Below are positions 7,599-18,034 of a stretch of 41,816 bases of DNA, in pieces (the first letter of the stretch is position 1; every line of letters begins with the position of its first letter). The notes under the pieces were generated by a model. That model was given only the letters and a program-made list of their open reading frames with translations, ran no database searches and was not told the DNA's origin. The position numbers were made by a program, and so were the translations under genes. The stretch is from Bacteroides sp. SM23_62_1 (lineage in GTDB: Bacteria > Bacteroidota > Bacteroidia > Bacteroidales > SM23-62): NCBI GenBank assembly GCA_001304505.1, contig LJUQ01000008.1, positions 1 through 41,816 of the forward strand. Reading direction: 5' to 3'.

Positions 7599-10500
7599 TT
7601 AGCCAGACCGGTCTATTTTCTGGAAAGTAACGATAAAATTGGCACCTTTGCCATATTCACTCTCACACCACACACGACCCCCCATTATATCGACAAATTT
7701 TTTCACAATAGATAAACCCAGTCCGGTGGACTTTTCTCCTGCGGTTGGCTGTGCTGTAAGACGTTGAAACTGTTTAAAAAGTTTGTTGAAATCTTCTTCA
7801 CTGACACCAGGGCCTTCATCTTTAAAGTTAATTCTGATTTCACCATCCTGCTCTTCCATATTTATCCACACATTCCTGTCCTTAGGTGAGAATTTAATTG
7901 CATTGGACAGCAGATTTTCAAATATCTGAATCAGGTAGTTTCTATCAGCTATTCCAAAAAGATTTTTATGTTGCAGATGTAACTTGATATTTTTTTGTCT
8001 GGCTGCCTCTTCAAAGTTTGAATAAACCTCCTGTAATACCTGGCCAAAATCCATTTTTTCACAATTCAGGTTTACTTTCTTTTGTTCAATCATACGTATA
8101 TCGAGTATCCTCGATATCATCTGGTTCATTCTCTCAAGTGCCCCCACCAGGAATTTGATATTGTCTCTCTCATCTTCATTTAAATTGCTGGCAGTTGTTT
8201 TCAGGTTATTCGCAATACTGAGACTGCTCGTAAGAGGATTCCTGAGATCATGTGCAACGATCTCAATCAGATGGTTCTTTTCCTGGTTAAGATCAACCAG
8301 TTCCTTATTCACTTTTTCAATTTCAAGCTTTTGTTTGTTTATATTTTCGTTTGCAATTTTTAAATTCTCAGTTTGTTCCTGGATCTTTTTATAGGCGGTT
8401 GAATTTTCAAGCGCAATTTTCGTGTAGACTGCCAGGTTTCTTAAGATATTCAGGTGATAGTCGGTATAAACATTTTTTTCAAAACTCTGAACTGTAATCA
8501 CTCCAATAACTTTTTTATCCTGTATGAGAGGAAGATAAATGATAGAGGATGAATTACCTGATTTGCCCGGTGGTGTGATAGACGGCAGGTAATTTTTATA
8601 TTCCTGCTCAAAATCATTGATAAATATTTCTTTTTTATTCTTAACGCAATATACTGAGAGGCGCAGTTGATCATCCAGGGAGAAGCTCAGGAAGTCGAGT
8701 GTCTCAGTTTTCTCTATAACCCCGGGGAAATCCAGTGAATGATTTTTTTCATTCACAATACCGATTCCAAATACTGTCGCATCCATCAGGTTATTAATTG
8801 CTTGATATACGGAGCTTACAATATTTTCAACCGTCAATTGCGATGTAATAATCCGGCCGATCTCACTGAGACGTTCAAGATTCTGGTAAGCTTCCTGAAG
8901 ATTTTCTGCCTGGACCATAATTTCTTCCTTCTGCTGTTCGAGTTGCTTGTTTTTCTTTACTACTTCCGATGTTTTGTCTCTGACAAGCTCTTCCAGTTCA
9001 TGCTTTTTCTGCTCTACCATCCTGATACGTATTCTGAAGATACTATAGGTAATACCCAGAAATATTATAACCAGCATGGATATAAACCAGATTGAATTCC
9101 ACCAGGCTCTTTTTATTCTAAAAGTAAATTCAGCCGGCTGTACATTCCAGATGCCATCATTATTCATAGCTCTTACCATGAAGGTATACTCTCCAGGCGG
9201 TATTTTTGGGTATACTGCTTCTGTCCTGTTGCTGACAGGTGACCATTCCTTATCAAGTCCGTCAAGTTTCCATTGATACCTGACTTTTTCGGGAGCCTGG
9301 TAACTCAGGGCCTCAAAATCAAAAGTAAAATGATTGCTGTCATGCGGTAACACAAGGTTTTCTGGTAATGGAAACCATTCCTGCACACCTGAGTGGAATT
9401 TACTATAATCATCGTTTCTCCACTGTATCTGTTGATAGAACAGTTTAATGTTGGTGATGTGGATTATAGGTTGAACAATATTAGGTTCAACGTTTCGGGG
9501 ATCATATTTCATTGCACCTTTCACTGTACCAAACCACAAACTTCCTTCTTGATCAATATAATTTGCAGCACCATTATTTTCTATACCTGTGAATCCATCC
9601 GATGTTCCAAAATGTTGAATGGAAGCAATATTACCTGTAGAATCAAAGCTGATCCGGTCAACACCATTTTGTGTCCCTGCCCATATATTTCCGGAGTGAT
9701 CGGTCAGGATAGAATAGATAATATTGGATGTTAATCCTTCGCTGGTAGTGAGGTGCCAGATACTTTTATCATCAAGAATATTGATACCACCTGCAAATGT
9801 TGCCATCCAGAAGCGCCCAGTAAAATCTTCCGTGATTTGCAGGATAATCGTGTTATTCAATCCATCTTCTGTTGTATAACTTTTGGTTGTCCCATTCTCA
9901 TAGACAGTTGCACCATTATTGGTTGAGAACCATACCCGTCCTCTGGTGTCTTTATACAGACTATGTACCTGGTTACTTTGAAGGGTACCATTTAAGATGG
10001 TTAATTGTTCCCGGTTACCGCTATTGATTTTAAAGACACCGTTACCAAGAGTAGCCAGCCATAATGTGCTATCATCTTTCAAGGCGTAAGAGAACTGGAA
10101 TGGAGTATCAAATCCAAAATTATGGCTTACAGAAGTAATATTTTTACCGTCGGACAGGAAAAGTCCATTGAGCGTTAAAATCAATAACCTGTTCCTCTCA
10201 ATTTCTATGAAATGTCTGACATTTACGAGCCCGGGATACCTATCCTGTGAAAAAGGTGTAAAACGGCTCCCGTCATATTTAACAATGCCGGCACTTGACA
10301 GGCCAAACCAGTAATCACCATTTGAATCCTGAAAAATTGCCCGTACCACATCTCCATTAATGATACTCTCAAAATTATAGGCGATGAAATTATTTTTACT
10401 GTACTGGATCAATCCTCCACCCTGTGTGCCCATCCAGATATTTCCTTCATGATCCTCCATGAAATTAAGAATGAAATCATTTGGCAGACCGTTACTTTGC

Positions 10501-11767: not shown

Positions 11768-12598
11768 TCACAAATCACCATGAGGAGGGGGGTATTCTTT
11801 CCATATAACTTCCTTCTGTCGTGAAAATATCTGATGTAAAATAAGGAATAGTAATACAGTTATTACGACTGAAGCAAAATAGACGATCAGGTAATCTCTC
11901 CGGTTGTTGAACAGGTTGGTAAGTGTAACCAGATCACTGCCATAAATATAGGATAGAACGTACCCAAAGCCATTATTGACCATATGAATAAAGATAACGG
12001 CTATCAGAGACCTTGTCTTCCAGTAAATATAACCCATTAATAATCCCGCAATAAAGGCACCAAAAAATTGCCATGGATTAAGATGTAATAATCCGAATAT
12101 AAAACTACTCCAGAGAATTGATTTGACTGGTGAATACCTTCTCAGAAATCCATCAAGAATAATCCCTCTGAGCAATATTTCCTCAAAGACAGGCCCTATC
12201 AGAACAACAAGTATAAGATTAAAAGGACTTTTACTGAGGAGCGTCTCAAATACCTCTTCCATGAATTCTGGTATTGGAATCAGGTTTGTTAACGGATCAA
12301 TGACTACTGCTACGGAAATAGTAATTAACAGCAGTAAAAGGGTTAATGAAACCGGCATGGTTCCGAAGTGTATTAAAGCTTCGGATGGTTCTGCAGATTT
12401 TTTCCTGATATGTATATACCATATGATTAAGATACCTGACAGCGTATATCCGATGAGATTAACCAGGGGGAGATTATCAAATCCTGTGATGGTACTAACT
12501 ATAAGCAGGAGAAAAGCAACTCCAACAGTAATGGCAATAAACAGTCCGAATATTCCCCAGGCCTGCGGTAGGGAAGGGTAGGGATGGGTATTGTTCAT
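11768..12598 (-). CDS. CPBP-family intramembrane (CAAX-type) metalloprotease
   Basis: EEILLRGII (EExxxR), FGLLHLNPWQF (FxxxH) and HMVNNGFGY motifs in a polytopic protein. Confidence 0.85.
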   Translation of the reverse strand: MNNTHPYPSLPQAWGIFGLFIAITVGVAFLLLIVSTITGFDNLPLVNLIGYTLSGILIIWYIHIRKKSAEPSEALIHFGTMPVSLTLLLLLITISVAVVIDPLTNLIPIPEFMEEVFETLLSKSPFNLILVVLIGPVFEEILLRGIILDGFLRRYSPVKSILWSSFIFGLLHLNPWQFFGAFIAGLLMGYIYWKTRSLIAVIFIHMVNNGFGYVLSYIYGSDLVTLTNLFNNRRDYLIVYFASVVITVLLFLILHQIFSRQKEVIWKEYPPPHGDL

Positions 12599-12844: not shown

Positions 12845-15025
12845 TCAGGCCGATCGGTTCAGAACGTCTGATGGAATCTGGGTCTTCCACAATTGTGAAT
12901 AGTATCCATCCATCCGGATAAGTTCATGATGTGAACCTGTTTCTGCTACTTTCCCATCATGAATACAAATAATACGATCAGTAATCGACAGGCTTGTTAA
13001 TCTGTGGGAAATAATAATCAGTGTCCTACCATCTTTTTTTATTTCCAGGATCAGTTTACGTATGATCTTTTCTGAGTATGAATCCAGCGCGGAGGTTGCT
13101 TCATCGAGTATTATTATGGAAGGATCCCGGTATAGTGCTCTCGCGATAGCTATCTTTTGCATTTCACCGCCTGATAGGCACAATCCGCGTTCTCCAACAG
13201 GCGTGACAAGACCATCAGGCAATGAATCGATGAGTGGAAACAATCCAGTTCTTTCAATCAGAGTAAATATTTTCTTCATATCTGGCTTTTCAATACCCGG
13301 TGCTATATTATCAATAAAATTACCCGTAAAAAGATCAATTCTCTGTGGAACAATCCCGACTATCTTTCTGAGGTTATCAGGATGAATATCCTTTATGTCG
13401 TACCTACCAATCCTTATCTTGCCTGATCTGACAGGATATATATTCATCAGGAGTGCAGCCATGGTGCTTTTGCCGCAGCCGCTTTCACCCGTAATTCCTG
13501 TTATTTCATTTCTAAAAATTGTAAGATTAAGGTTATTCAGTAGGTTATTACGATTTCCATACCTGAAGGAGACGTTCTCAAAATGGATATTATCTCTCAC
13601 ATCAGGATTCAGGCTAATAAGGAATCTTCTTTCAGTCTTATCATATTCCAGGTCCAGAATTTGAAACAACCTGTCAGCTGCGATAAGAGCATCCTGCACA
13701 GTCCTGTTCATATTTATGAGAGCAGACACTGGCCCAAGCAGGTAACCAAATAGGCTGTATAGCAGCATCAGTTCCCCCGGCGTGAGTTCCTGTCTGAAGA
13801 CCAGTAAAGACCCGATCCACAGCAATATAATCGTGACTAATCCTGTAAGCATACTGGTACCATGGTATGCGAATATCCCATGTTTACCTGCCGTAAAGTT
13901 TGAGGAAAGGAGCTGAACAAATGCAGATTCTGTCTTATTAAAAGCCAATCCTTCAAGTCCAAGATACCGTATTGTTGCAAAACCGTTTAGCGATTCAACA
14001 AGTTGGGATTCAAGATCCGCTGATTTCTCCATAACATTCCTGAGTATTCTTTTGTTCGCATGATTGAAGAGCGCATAAACAAACATAAATGCTGGAATGG
14101 CAACGACAAGTATGACAGATATTTTTATTGAAATCAGAACGGAAAGGATAACAGAAATGACGATGGTAAAACTGCTTACAACAAGTTCAATCGCGGTATT
14201 ACTGATGAAGAATCTTATTTTCACTGCATCGTTGACCCTTGAAATCAACTCTCCTGTTCGCATGGTATCGAAGAACCGGGATGGCAGTTTAAGCAGGTGT
14301 TTGTAGTAGCCTAGGATCAGGGATCCATCAATAAACTGGCCGGCTTTCATGAGAAATATACTTTTCCAGGTACCAAGGAAAATCCTGAAAAACAAAAGCA
14401 CTATCATGATCACACTCAACAGGTTCAGGAGATTACTGTTTCTGTCAGGTAATATGTTATCGATAATTTTCTGAACATATATTGATACGGTTAGCCCGAG
14501 GATACTGTAAAGGGCTGCACCAAAGAATGCGTGGATCAGAAAACCTGACTGTGGATGTATGAGATGCAGAAATCTACGGAATAATGAGATACTGTTATTT
14601 CCAGGCTTGAAATTTTCACAGGGTGTGAGGATAATTATTACACCTGTCCATAATGACCTGAATTCGTCGAACGGGATTTTATTCAGTGATCCATTTGCAG
14701 GGTCCATATAACAGATTCTTTTTCTGCTGGAACCATAAGCAACTACAAAGTGAAATAAACCATTCGGCATTTTCAAATGTGCAATGAATGGCGCTGGAAT
14801 GTCCCTGATGTTATCCGAAGTCCACCGAACTCCTTTGGCAAGGAATCCCATTTTTTCAGCAGCTTCGATAATCCCCAGTACATTTGTTCCATTCCGGTCG
14901 GTTGAGGACCATTGCCTAATTCTCGATACCGGATGCTTCAGTCCATACCATTCACCAATGGAAGCCAGACAGGCTGCACCACAATCTGTTATATCCTGCT
15001 GCCTGATTCTTGCCGGCCTTCTCAT
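12845..15025 (-). CDS. Peptidase C39-containing ABC transporter/exporter (PCAT, bacteriocin-type)
   Basis: RQQDITDCGAACLASIGEWYG (Cys), GLFHFVVAYG (His), YMDPANG (Asp); TM domain; GESGCGKST Walker A; LSGGEMQKIAIARAL signature; IIILDEATSALD Walker B. Confidence 0.95.
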   Translation of the reverse strand: MRRPARIRQQDITDCGAACLASIGEWYGLKHPVSRIRQWSSTDRNGTNVLGIIEAAEKMGFLAKGVRWTSDNIRDIPAPFIAHLKMPNGLFHFVVAYGSSRKRICYMDPANGSLNKIPFDEFRSLWTGVIIILTPCENFKPGNNSISLFRRFLHLIHPQSGFLIHAFFGAALYSILGLTVSIYVQKIIDNILPDRNSNLLNLLSVIMIVLLFFRIFLGTWKSIFLMKAGQFIDGSLILGYYKHLLKLPSRFFDTMRTGELISRVNDAVKIRFFISNTAIELVVSSFTIVISVILSVLISIKISVILVVAIPAFMFVYALFNHANKRILRNVMEKSADLESQLVESLNGFATIRYLGLEGLAFNKTESAFVQLLSSNFTAGKHGIFAYHGTSMLTGLVTIILLWIGSLLVFRQELTPGELMLLYSLFGYLLGPVSALINMNRTVQDALIAADRLFQILDLEYDKTERRFLISLNPDVRDNIHFENVSFRYGNRNNLLNNLNLTIFRNEITGITGESGCGKSTMAALLMNIYPVRSGKIRIGRYDIKDIHPDNLRKIVGIVPQRIDLFTGNFIDNIAPGIEKPDMKKIFTLIERTGLFPLIDSLPDGLVTPVGERGLCLSGGEMQKIAIARALYRDPSIIILDEATSALDSYSEKIIRKLILEIKKDGRTLIIISHRLTSLSITDRIICIHDGKVAETGSHHELIRMDGYYSQLWKTQIPSDVLNRSA

Positions 15026-15035
15026 CGGGATATGG

Positions 15036-16211
15036 TTATGGTATTAAAGTTTTTTCCCTGGCAACGTATGGATTCAGGTGATAATCGATCCTGCTGACCA
15101 GGAGCTGGAAAATGGATCTTCTTGCCATGAAACAACGGGCCTGGAAGGTCATTCCCTTTTTCAACTTCCCCTGTAAACCATTTCTCATTATCAGTAAATC
15201 CCGGTCAGGTTTGCATCTTACTTTATAAACAGGACGGTTATCAAGCAATATAAAATCGTCAGGAATATCTGTTATAGTCCCGTGAAGGGTCCCCCATTCC
15301 CTGTAGTCAAATGCGTCAACCATCATAATAATTTCCTGGCCCTCCTTCACGGACCCAATGTGAGTTGGTGTAATAAACATTTCACCAATCAACATTGTAT
15401 CGGGTGAAATGCATGCCAGCTCCACTCCCGGTTGAATATTTGATCCCTCGTAAATACCGGTGAACTGTTCAAGATATCCGGAAACAGGTGCAATAATCTC
15501 ACAATATTCCATCTCCTTTTGGATCCTGTTAATTGCAGTCCTGACCTGGATCATCGTATATTGAAGCAGGGATAATTCATTTTGCCAGTTGCTGAAAGTG
15601 CTGTTCATAAGATATTCAAGCTCACTTTTTATTAAAGATTCAGAATAAACAAGATTATCATATTCCTGGTCGCTGATGAATTTACCATGATATAGCTCTT
15701 TAAAACGTTCTTTCTCTTTCGTAGATTTTTTTAATTCTTCTTTCACCTGATGCATCCTGCTGAAATAACTGTTGTATTCAAACCTGTATTTTATTGAGAC
15801 CATTTCAGTATCTTTTTCTGCGAGAAGATTCTGTAAATCTGTCATTTCATTATTCACAAGCATTTCCTCATGCAGTTTCTGATTCAGATCATCCAGCAAA
15901 TGTCGTTGGTTGAGAGTGATTAAAACCTGACCTCTGGTAACCATTTCCCCTTCCCGGCATTGGATCTTTTCTACCTTGCCTGCAATAAGTGAACTGACAA
16001 ATGTTTTTTCACTGACAGGCCGTATGATTCCGGGTGCATTAAAGGAAGTGTTGACATTTATTAAGGGCAGACAGGACATTCCTGTAGTAAAAAAAATAAT
16101 GATTATATAATATAGAATCCTGCCTGAATCAGAGATCTTCCCCAGATAATATTCGTAGCTTCCTCTGAATTGCACGTCTGAAGAAAAATGTCCATGCTCT
16201 TTTAGGTCCAT
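15036..16211 (-). CDS. HlyD-family membrane fusion/adaptor protein of the peptide exporter
   Basis: N-terminal TM helix, biotinyl-lipoyl-like GKVEKIQCREGEMVTRGQVLITL, long coiled coil, APVSGYLEQFTGIYEGSNIQPGVELACI. The gap to the exporter start is 10 nt. Confidence 0.9.
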   Translation of the reverse strand: MDLKEHGHFSSDVQFRGSYEYYLGKISDSGRILYYIIIIFFTTGMSCLPLINVNTSFNAPGIIRPVSEKTFVSSLIAGKVEKIQCREGEMVTRGQVLITLNQRHLLDDLNQKLHEEMLVNNEMTDLQNLLAEKDTEMVSIKYRFEYNSYFSRMHQVKEELKKSTKEKERFKELYHGKFISDQEYDNLVYSESLIKSELEYLMNSTFSNWQNELSLLQYTMIQVRTAINRIQKEMEYCEIIAPVSGYLEQFTGIYEGSNIQPGVELACISPDTMLIGEMFITPTHIGSVKEGQEIIMMVDAFDYREWGTLHGTITDIPDDFILLDNRPVYKVRCKPDRDLLIMRNGLQGKLKKGMTFQARCFMARRSIFQLLVSRIDYHLNPYVAREKTLIP

Positions 16212-16225
16212 CAGTACAACATTTT

Positions 16226-16339
16226 TCAGCCACCAAACAGCAAAGTCTTCAATGTATCCCAGTTCCTGAAAACAAGAATGAAGAATATCAGGGCAACCAG
16301 GAATAAAAGGATACTGTATACGATCTTTTTTGTTTTCAT
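16226..16339 (-). CDS. 37-aa single-TM microprotein with amphipathic C-terminal tail
   Basis: Read directly from the sequence (below the ORF-track cutoff): MKTKKIVYSILLFLVALIFFILVFRNWDTLKTLLFGG*. A-rich upstream AAAAAGATAAAG-ATG; stop lies 14 nt before the HlyD start. Confidence 0.7.
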   Translation of the reverse strand: MKTKKIVYSILLFLVALIFFILVFRNWDTLKTLLFGG

Positions 16340-16441: not shown

Positions 16442-16630
16442 CTATGGTTCAGGTTGTCCACATAATCCAGCAACAAAACTGTTGTAAGTATGTTTTAACC
16501 TGTCGCACATTTCAGCGGTATGCGAGGTTATGAATGGGATCAGCAGAGATGGACTGATTGGAATAAATCCACCTCTGATTTCCAATAACTCATGGCTGCC
16601 AAGCAGTTGTTCATTATTCGATGGTTTCAT
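16442..16630 (-). CDS. Double-glycine-leader peptide precursor 3
   Basis: MKPSNNEQLLGSHELLEIRGG | FIPISPSLLIPFITSHTAEMCDRLKHTYNSFVAGLCGQPEP; canonical L-E-x-x-GG leader next to a C39 exporter. Confidence 0.85.
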   Translation of the reverse strand: MKPSNNEQLLGSHELLEIRGGFIPISPSLLIPFITSHTAEMCDRLKHTYNSFVAGLCGQPEP

Positions 16631-16659: not shown

Positions 16660-16863
16660 TCACATATTATTGACAGCCATATTGGTAACGAAATCTGTAT
16701 ATGCATACATATTTCCCCTGATACCGGTCCCTTCATAAATATAAATACCCACATACCGGATAAGTCTTCCAAGATCATAGGCAAAACTGCCTCCATTGAT
16801 TTGAGATAATTCATTGCTATCTATCTGTCTGAGCGAGTTTGTGATTGTTTCTGATTTTTTCAT
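16660..16863 (-). CDS. Double-glycine-leader peptide precursor 2
   Basis: MKKSETITNSLRQIDSNELSQINGG | SFAYDLGRLIRYVGIYIYEGTGIRGNMYAYTDFVTNMAVNNM; canonical EL-x-x-I-x-GG leader. Confidence 0.88.
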   Translation of the reverse strand: MKKSETITNSLRQIDSNELSQINGGSFAYDLGRLIRYVGIYIYEGTGIRGNMYAYTDFVTNMAVNNM

Positions 16864-16913: not shown

Positions 16914-17102
16914 CTAATGATGTATTTCAGGTTTGCCAAGTAAACCCGCTTTAAAATTGTCCCAATCACGAATTACCTCTTCGACTGCTGCGCAGGCACC
17001 GGCAATTAAGATAGGGAGGAACCATGCAACTCCTCCGGAAGTTTCAAGCAATTCCTTTTGATCCATCAACTGGATGTCATTGAGTTGTTCGATTGTTTTC
17101 AT
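16914..17102 (-). CDS. Double-glycine-leader peptide precursor 1
   Basis: MKTIEQLNDIQLMDQKELLETSGG | VAWFLPILIAGACAAVEEVIRDWDNFKAGLLGKPEIHH; canonical KELLExSGG leader, hydrophobic core and amphipathic tail. Confidence 0.88.
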   Translation of the reverse strand: MKTIEQLNDIQLMDQKELLETSGGVAWFLPILIAGACAAVEEVIRDWDNFKAGLLGKPEIHH

Positions 17103-17422: not shown

Positions 17423-18034
17423 TCACCTGATAAAAACAGCCATGATCAATCCGCAGGGTATTAGAGAAATGATTACAATGATGAGGCTTTTCCACCAGGG
17501 CAGGTGTGTTATTTTAGTTAATGTAAGAGTAGACATGTAAAAGATCCATAAAAAAGGTATGATAAATACTCTTAAGTTCTCGATCCATTCAGACCACGGA
17601 AGTGTATCCATACCTTTCATTATTAGAAAAGGGGCAACAAATGTTTCAGGTATCCACATAAATATGATGCATGGAATAAAAATTGTAAAGGACTGGGTTG
17701 TGAAAATTGTATCAAACTCGGGCTTTCTGTCCGTTGCGCTGACCAACAGGTAGACTACCCCGCTATAGGTTAAGAATCCTGCCAGGCCTACAGGTATTGT
17801 TGTAAAGGTCTGTATGAGATACCATTTATCAGGTGGTATTGGTAACCAGGGTGTAGCAACAGGCTTATGACCGAGCAGAAAGAAAATAAGTACTGTTAAT
17901 GAATAAAGGAAATGAAAGGTAATAAGCCACCAGAAACCAATCCATAAGGCCTTTTTCTCCTGGCTGATATCTTGAGCTGCCTTACCCGGTTCAATAATAA
18001 ATCTTAGAAAATATTTGGTTAATTTCCTTAGCAT
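17423..18034 (-). CDS. Yip1-like polytopic membrane protein
   Basis: About five hydrophobic segments; MLRKLTKYFLRFIIEPGKAAQDISQEKKALWIGFWW start is like that of Yip1-domain proteins. Confidence 0.5.
   Translation of the reverse strand: MLRKLTKYFLRFIIEPGKAAQDISQEKKALWIGFWWLITFHFLYSLTVLIFFLLGHKPVATPWLPIPPDKWYLIQTFTTIPVGLAGFLTYSGVVYLLVSATDRKPEFDTIFTTQSFTIFIPCIIFMWIPETFVAPFLIMKGMDTLPWSEWIENLRVFIIPFLWIFYMSTLTLTKITHLPWWKSLIIVIISLIPCGLIMAVFIR

What the first reader, a model, noticed from the sequence alone, without database searches (positions are those of the whole stretch)
16226..16339. Unlisted 37-aa TM microprotein whose tail mimics the exported peptides
MKTKKIVYSILLFLVALIFFILVFRNWDTLKTLLFGG lies between precursor 3 and HlyD, one TM helix followed by RNWDTLKTLLFGG. 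Compare precursor 1 IRDWDNFKAGLLGKPE. It lacks a GG leader. A membrane-tethered relative of the exported tail is a natural candidate for a self-immunity decoy, a chaperone-like exporter subunit, or a producer-side receptor partner. It falls below the usual ORF-calling cutoff.
Basis: partly seen in the sequence, partly recalled or inferred. Interest (0 to 1): 0.72.

Follow-up and report, generated by a model that had tools for sequence, protein, structure and literature searches.

The report
Tethered mimic of an exported bacteriocin
A tiny 37-residue membrane protein, conserved beside genes for a secreted two-peptide toxin-like system, carries a tail that imitates one of the exported peptides, and is most likely the producer's self-protection protein, in a bacterial group where immunity to such peptides is largely undescribed.

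Summary
The ORF is real: 16339-16226, minus strand, 37 aa, between precursor 3 and HlyD. It is conserved without internal gaps in all six sister genomes held, always after the alpha and beta double-glycine precursors and before HlyD, and is under purifying selection (pn/ps 0.17-0.31 in the closer pairs). It belongs to a wider, unannotated Bacteroidia set of leaderless single-TM proteins (33-52 aa), mostly beside an alpha/beta precursor pair. The resemblance to precursor 1 is also real: profile-profile E 1.2e-5 to alpha, none to beta. Tails track their own locus: 52 matched identities over 8 loci against 37 expected, reached by 1.2e-4 of all pairings. Two loci are near copies (TDWDGFKAGISGGI / KNWNDFISGISGGI; YDWEHFKDGLLG / LDWNHFKDGLLG). 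Four genomes with full alpha-tail TM proteins gave no other alpha hit; in three these sit near CPBP/Abi-type proteases. The exporter lies downstream in the window's family but upstream elsewhere, so linkage is to the precursors. Best explanation: a dedicated immunity protein, N-in/C-out, whose periplasmic tail imitates its peptide's. It works like CbnZ, the proven 42-aa single-TM immunity protein of carnobacteriocin XY. The immunity role is inferred; the mimic mechanism is a hypothesis.

The parts
16226..16339 (-). 37-aa leaderless single-TM microprotein, candidate immunity protein (the finding)
16268..16324 (-). predicted TM helix, residues 6-24, Gly-free; N-terminus +4, so N-in/C-out expected
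   Evidence: hydropathy and charge; AF2 helix 2-25
16229..16267 (-). tail RNWDTLKTLLFGG, expected periplasmic, resembles the alpha tail
   Evidence: AF2 helix 27-35
16914..17102 (-). precursor 1 (alpha): GG leader, hydrophobic small-residue-rich helix, tail VIRDWDNFKAGLLGKPEIHH
16917..16970 (-). alpha tail RDWDNFKAGLLGKPEIHH, the element imitated
16660..16863 (-). precursor 2 (beta): GG leader then SFAYDLGRLIRY
16442..16630 (-). precursor 3: GG leader, tail YNSFVAGLCGQPEP resembles alpha; absent from the sister-genus loci
15036..16211 (-). HlyD-type periplasmic adaptor (membrane fusion protein)
   Evidence: (TIGR01843 E 6e-39)
12845..15025 (-). C39-peptidase ABC exporter (PCAT)
   Evidence: TIGR01193 E 1e-142; PF03412, PF00664, PF00005
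11768..12598 (-). CPBP/Abi-type (Rce1-like) membrane protease next after PCAT; a similar protein follows PCAT in three sister loci whose contigs reach that far; possible second immunity factor
   Evidence: (PF02517 E 2e-24)

Best explanation
The microprotein is the dedicated immunity protein of a two-peptide (class IIb-like) double-glycine bacteriocin system. Steps shown: it is a conserved protein-coding gene in an alpha-beta-(precursor 3)-micro-HlyD-PCAT cluster; it is one TM helix with a basic N-terminus and a short tail; the tail resembles the tail of the cluster's own alpha peptide and changes with it between loci. Steps inferred: it inserts N-in/C-out, so the tail faces the periplasm where the mature alpha peptide would attack; and it protects the producer by occupying whatever the alpha tail docks on (the beta peptide, a membrane receptor, or alpha itself). 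The alpha helix is rich in Gly/Ala, as expected of a packing, pore-forming helix, whereas the micro's helix is almost Gly-free: it would keep the recognition tail and lack the pore-forming face, a tethered, inactive copy of alpha.
For: Frame conserved in 6/6 sister genomes, same position; purifying selection. In the 394-genome order sample, all 8 genomes with a strong alpha hit (E < 1e-25) also carry the micro beside alpha/beta. Two more families repeat it: G588 and G1109, G1171 and G1184. Alpha-like tail by profile comparison, not beta-like. Matched tails exceed permuted pairings: p 1.5e-4 with 9 loci, 1.2e-4 exact with 8 loci; at W+4 K/K in most, I/I in G004, E/E in G084. In the window and G1171 the shared residues mostly use different codons, so the match is not just recent DNA copying. 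Exporter upstream of alpha in G588, G345, G1171 and G1109 but downstream in the window's family. Full alpha-tail TM proteins in genomes with no other alpha hit (G447, G1111, G1134, G1145), in G447, G1111 and G1134 near PF02517 proteases. Precedent: CbnZ, 42 aa, one TMD, N-in/C-out, proven immunity (PMC6957408); Abi proteases are known bacteriocin immunity proteins (PMC6957408, PMC8538875).
Against: No functional data of any kind: neither toxicity of alpha/beta nor protection by the micro is shown. The window has three precursors and one micro; some sister loci have two precursors and two micros, so there is no 1:1 rule. A CPBP protease follows PCAT and could itself give immunity. G242 has two such micros but no clear alpha of this type. 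In an unselected set of C39 loci the association of hydrophobic GG peptides with TM ORFs is only a trend (Fisher p 0.067). Shared ancestry can inflate the covariation test. The G1184 tail pair is nearly identical at DNA level (2 of 10 shared codons differ), so recent duplication explains that case.
Confidence: 0.6

Rival explanations
1. Exporter accessory: the micro is a small subunit or assembly factor of the HlyD-PCAT exporter, holding alpha's tail during export.
For: 14 bp before hlyD in the window and directly before hlyD in all sister loci; many small TM proteins are subunits of larger membrane complexes (general knowledge).
Against: In G588, G345, G1171 and G1109 the exporter lies upstream of alpha and the micro is next to the precursors instead; G1111's alpha-tail TM protein has no exporter or GG precursor in its 19-kb stretch; most other C39 exporter loci examined have no such ORF.
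Confidence: 0.12
2. A leaderless or membrane-bound toxic peptide: the micro is a third effector, an alpha variant without a GG leader that acts from or is released from the membrane.
For: Tail and overall helix-plus-tail plan match mature alpha; some solitary copies carry the whole alpha tail.
Against: A strongly basic N-terminus and a Gly-poor, very hydrophobic helix suit a retained membrane anchor rather than an exported peptide; copies near CPBP proteases look like immunity islands.
Confidence: 0.1
3. Immunity comes mainly from the CPBP protease or another gene; the micro regulates, senses or stabilises, for example as a sensor partner for returning alpha peptide.
For: CPBP after PCAT in the window's family and CPBPs in several related loci; such proteins are known immunity factors.
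Against: No kinase or receptor gene sits beside the micro in the window; CPBP is not between the precursors and the exporter in the window's family while the micro always is; G1171 and G1184 show no CPBP in the short stretches available.
Confidence: 0.13
4. The tail resemblance is convergence on a generic membrane-interface motif (Trp at the boundary, then an amphipathic turn), with no functional link to alpha.
For: Trp-Asp/Asn at helix ends is common at membrane interfaces (general knowledge); the window pair shares only 7 residues in the tail.
Against: Rare in background TM ORFs (2 of 408); locus-matched covariation; near-copies in G1171 and G1184 and full alpha tails in G447/G1111/G1134/G1145.
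Confidence: 0.1

Closest known systems
[quoted passage not shown]
   Same: Very small (42 aa against 37), one TM helix, N-in/C-out (proven for CbnZ, predicted here), encoded near the two GG-leader peptides.
   Different: Gram-positive (Carnobacterium); function proven there and not here; no resemblance of CbnZ to its own bacteriocin is mentioned in the passages read. Homology not tested.
Class II microcin systems of Enterobacterales (precursor, immunity protein, PCAT, MFP, TolC; PMC9746304)
   Same: Gram-negative GG precursor cluster with PCAT and membrane fusion protein; immunity proteins are small inner-membrane proteins near the precursor.
   Different: Verified microcin immunity proteins are 51-216 aa; two paired precursors here; phylum Bacteroidota; no tail mimicry described in the passages read.
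Abi/CPBP immunity proteases (PlnI-type; PF02517)
   Same: CPBP proteins are present in these clusters and are the other likely immunity factor.
   Different: The microprotein itself is not a CPBP.
Bacteroidetocins (PMC6671954)
   Same: Bacteroidales GG-leader class II peptides with a C39 exporter.
   Different: Single pediocin-like peptide that also inhibits its producer; no immunity protein found; no small TM mimic reported.

Membership tests
Two-peptide (class IIb) bacteriocin system | Two adjacent small precursors with double-glycine leaders | tested here: met
   alpha and beta adjacent in the window and in all sister loci
Two-peptide (class IIb) bacteriocin system | C39-peptidase ABC exporter with accessory protein | tested here: met
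   PF03412/TIGR01193 and HlyD family
Two-peptide (class IIb) bacteriocin system | GxxxG or GxxxG-like motif in the peptides' helices | tested here: inconclusive
   the window alpha helix has small-x3-small but not GxxxG; beta not scored
Two-peptide (class IIb) bacteriocin system | Both peptides needed for antibacterial activity | not testable with these tools
   needs peptides and assays
NCBIfam TIGR03949 (lactobin A/cerein 7B class IIb) | Score above curated cut-off | tested here: not met
   precursor 1 scores 15.7 against 21.5; not filed as a member
CbnZ-like short immunity proteins | Under about 60 aa with one TM helix, near the structural genes | tested here: met
   37 aa, one TM, directly after the precursors
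CbnZ-like short immunity proteins | N-in/C-out topology | tested here: inconclusive
   charge bias predicts it in all 18 proteins compared; not measured
CbnZ-like short immunity proteins | Confers resistance to the cognate peptides | not testable with these tools
   needs expression in a sensitive strain
CbnZ-like short immunity proteins | Sequence homology to CbnZ | not tested
Abi/CPBP (PF02517) | PF02517 match | tested here: not met
   the microprotein has none; the neighbour at 11768-12598 does
PCAT exporter subunit | Constant linkage to the exporter genes | tested here: not met
   linked to precursors, not exporter, outside the window's family

The most novel reading that the evidence does not exclude
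Bacteroidia protect themselves from two-peptide GG bacteriocins with membrane-tethered, leaderless mimics of the toxin itself: each mimic keeps its own alpha peptide's recognition tail on a non-pore-forming helix, is rebuilt when alpha changes, and spreads as an orphan immunity gene to non-producers.
Probability: 0.4. Interest if true: 0.78.

Novelty: new variant of a known kind. Interest (0 to 1): 0.64.

Why it matters
How immunity proteins of two-peptide bacteriocins work is described as a mystery (PMC6957408), and for Bacteroidales GG peptides immunity genes have not been found (PMC6671954, PMC10352776). A family of sub-40-residue proteins, below usual gene-calling limits, whose tails copy their cognate toxin would explain why they were missed and gives a precise, testable recognition model: swap the tail and the specificity should follow. 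It also gives a search rule, a leaderless TM plus the precursor's tail, for finding immunity genes and orphan resistance in a dominant environmental and gut phylum.

Tried and rejected
Family libraries gave nothing for the micro (NCBIfam, Pfam, PHROGs); the PDB profile search gave only chance-level TM hits. The wider HlyD search found Chitinophaga, Balneolaceae, Rhodohalobacter and Dyadobacter loci with no clear micro upstream of HlyD. Alpha search in viral contigs and plasmids: nothing. The order-wide micro search gave many weak hits that are TM background; only hits with precursor context were kept, except G283 and G242, which lack a clear alpha. A general association of TM ORFs with hydrophobic GG peptides was tried and is not significant. 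A GG leader in the micro: none, and its terminal GG is not conserved. GxxxG mimicry of alpha's helix: rejected, the micro's helix is almost Gly-free. The idea that every GG peptide type has a matching TM mimic (other tails in G447, G702, G063, G419) was seen but not tested. Literature searches for immunity by mimicry in bacteriocins returned no described case, but the library is partial.

Full report
WHAT IS THERE. The cluster runs, on the minus strand, precursor 1 (alpha, 17102-16914), precursor 2 (beta, 16863-16660), precursor 3 (16630-16442), the microprotein, HlyD (16211-15036), a C39-peptidase ABC exporter (15025-12845) and, 246 bp further, a CPBP/Rce1-like protease (12598-11768). The microprotein matches no Pfam, NCBIfam or PHROGs family.

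IT IS A REAL GENE. A search of 98 genomes found it in all six sister-genus genomes held (G001-G006), each hit starting at residue 1. In each it sits directly before hlyD and after two GG precursors equivalent to alpha and beta. The alignment has no internal gaps; M1, K2, I18, L22, F24, N26 and W27 are invariant. Nei-Gojobori counts give pn/ps 0.17-0.31 for the closer pairs, comparable with or stronger than the constraint on alpha and beta. A profile finds the family members at E 1e-16 to 1e-19, with the next hit at 8e-5. AlphaFold2 predicts a helix at 2-25, a break, and a short helix at 27-35 (pLDDT 88). The N-terminus is +4 and the tail near neutral in the window and similarly biased in 17 relatives, so N-in/C-out is expected by the positive-inside rule.

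IT IS PART OF A WIDER SET. Weak hits with precursor context led to unrelated families: G345 and G084 (same order), G588 and G1109, G1171 and G1184. Each has alpha (GG leader, small-residue-rich helix, tail .DW[DE].F), beta (GG then usually FAYD.G or similar), and a leaderless TM ORF of 33-48 aa ending in a related tail. In the 394-genome order sample alpha is found at E < 1e-25 in eight genomes; all eight carry the micro. In most other C39-exporter loci examined, which make Cys-rich or otherwise different GG peptides, there is no such ORF, but the formal test of that contrast is only a trend (p 0.067).

THE TAIL RESEMBLES ALPHA, AND ITS OWN ALPHA BEST. Profile-profile comparison aligns micro and alpha over the end of the helix and the tail (E 1.2e-5, probability 81%), and finds nothing with beta. 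Position by position, W+4 is K in both for most loci, I in both for G004, E in both for G084; W-2 is R in both for the window, G001, G003 and G006 and not R in either for the rest. Over eight loci the matched pairs share 52 tail residues against a mean of 37 for permuted pairings, a value reached by 1.2e-4 of all 40,320 pairings; with nine earlier loci p is 1.5e-4, and with six divergent ones 0.004. The clearest cases are G1171 (alpha TDWDGFKAGISGGI, micro KNWNDFISGISGGI, both at the C-terminus, adjacent genes) and G1184 (alpha YDWEHFKDGLLG, micro LDWNHFKDGLLG). In the window and in G1171 shared residues mostly use different codons, so selection on the protein is more likely than recent copying; in G1184 the DNA is nearly identical, which suggests that tails can be renewed by duplication or conversion (inference). 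Caveats: loci are few and partly related, and the test does not model the tree.

SOLITARY FULL-TAIL COPIES. In G447, G1111, G1134 and G1145 a leaderless TM protein carries the whole alpha tail (SDWENFKAGLTGNPP, KDWENFKRGLQGAPE, NDWENFKRGIHGKPP, SDWQNFKAGFMGEPP) while the alpha profile finds nothing else in those genomes. In G1111 it lies in a stretch with a CPBP protease and other small TM ORFs but no precursor or exporter; in G1134 and G447 it lies near CPBP proteases and other GG peptides. CPBP (Abi) proteins are known immunity factors of two-peptide bacteriocins (PMC6957408, PMC8538875). These look like immunity islands carried by non-producers of this alpha (inference).

HOW IT PROBABLY WORKS. 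Gene order separates the exporter and immunity roles: in the window's family the exporter follows the micro, but in G588, G345, G1171 and G1109 it precedes alpha, and the micro stays by the precursors. That, the covariation with alpha and the solitary copies favour immunity. CbnZ, 42 aa with one TM, N-in/C-out, was shown by heterologous expression and PhoA/LacZ fusions to be the immunity protein of carnobacteriocin XY (PMC6957408), so a protein of this size and shape can do the job. The mimicry suggests how: the tail would take the place of alpha's tail on its partner or receptor, while the almost Gly-free helix cannot pack as alpha's does. Shown: gene, conservation, resemblance, covariation, context. 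Inferred: topology, immunity. Hypothesis: decoy mechanism.

COMPARED WITH WHAT IS KNOWN. It works like a short single-TM immunity protein, but is not filed as a member of a named family: none matches, and homology to CbnZ was not tested. Precursor 1 falls below the cut-off of TIGR03949, so the peptides are called class IIb-like only. Verified class II microcin immunity proteins are 51-216 aa (PMC9746304). In Bacteroidales, bacteroidetocins have no immunity protein found (PMC6671954), and a Bacteroidales mining study found no homologue of known immunity proteins (PMC10352776). No described case of immunity by imitation of the bacteriocin was found in the library searched, which is partial.

VERDICT. 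Observation confirmed; interpretation partly supported, with immunity the leading role. New variant of a known kind.

Noticed in passing
L090 9265-9591 (+), L091 892-1209 (-), L093 4035-4370 (+), L103 11424-11780 (-), L104 7251-7592 (-), L235 (reverse complement 7806-8138): A 100-120-aa protein beside the exporter in many related loci (not in the window) has an HTH-like N-terminus (weak HTH_11 hit) and a C-terminal double-glycine-leader-like motif (for example LRQDEEKLINGGK), as if a DNA-binding protein carried a C39-cleavable end.
   Followed up: partly
window 16442-16630 (-): Precursor 3 ends YNSFVAGLCGQPEP, close to alpha's DNFKAGLLGKPE: a diverged extra alpha-like peptide, absent from the sister-genus loci.
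   Followed up: partly
L097 4474-4620 (-), L098 2817-2963 (+), L099 7263-7409 (+), L101 6977-7105 (+): A second small TM protein (42-48 aa, W just after the TM) lies upstream of alpha in four sister genomes, under purifying selection in three; the window lacks it.
   Followed up: partly
L089 9473-9610, 9846-9977 and L090 13443-13571: Other TM micros end in YDFGKELGG / YELGRTLGKAL / FELGEKFGKAL, recalling the AYNIGNDIG stretch of a neighbouring GG peptide: a possible mimic of another peptide type.
   Followed up: no
L094 7879-8064 (-) and L095 9413-9541 (-): Two distant loci pair an alpha ending D[IV]REG[FL]SDGY.G with a TM micro ending Y[GS]P[AD]IVR..I: possibly a second cognate class.
   Followed up: no
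L226 8916-9137 (-): An alpha-tail TM protein whose longer frame starts MEKFIGLNEFEKERIKG, resembling an alpha leader with the GG lost: a possible intermediate between toxin and mimic.
   Followed up: no
G000:C295:3830-4186 (L179): The window's genome has a second C39-exporter locus on another contig; no GG precursor was picked up near it by the simple pattern used.
   Followed up: no
window 17423-18034 (-): A Yip1-domain membrane protein (PF04893 E 1e-8) lies upstream of alpha; not examined in the sister loci.
   Followed up: no
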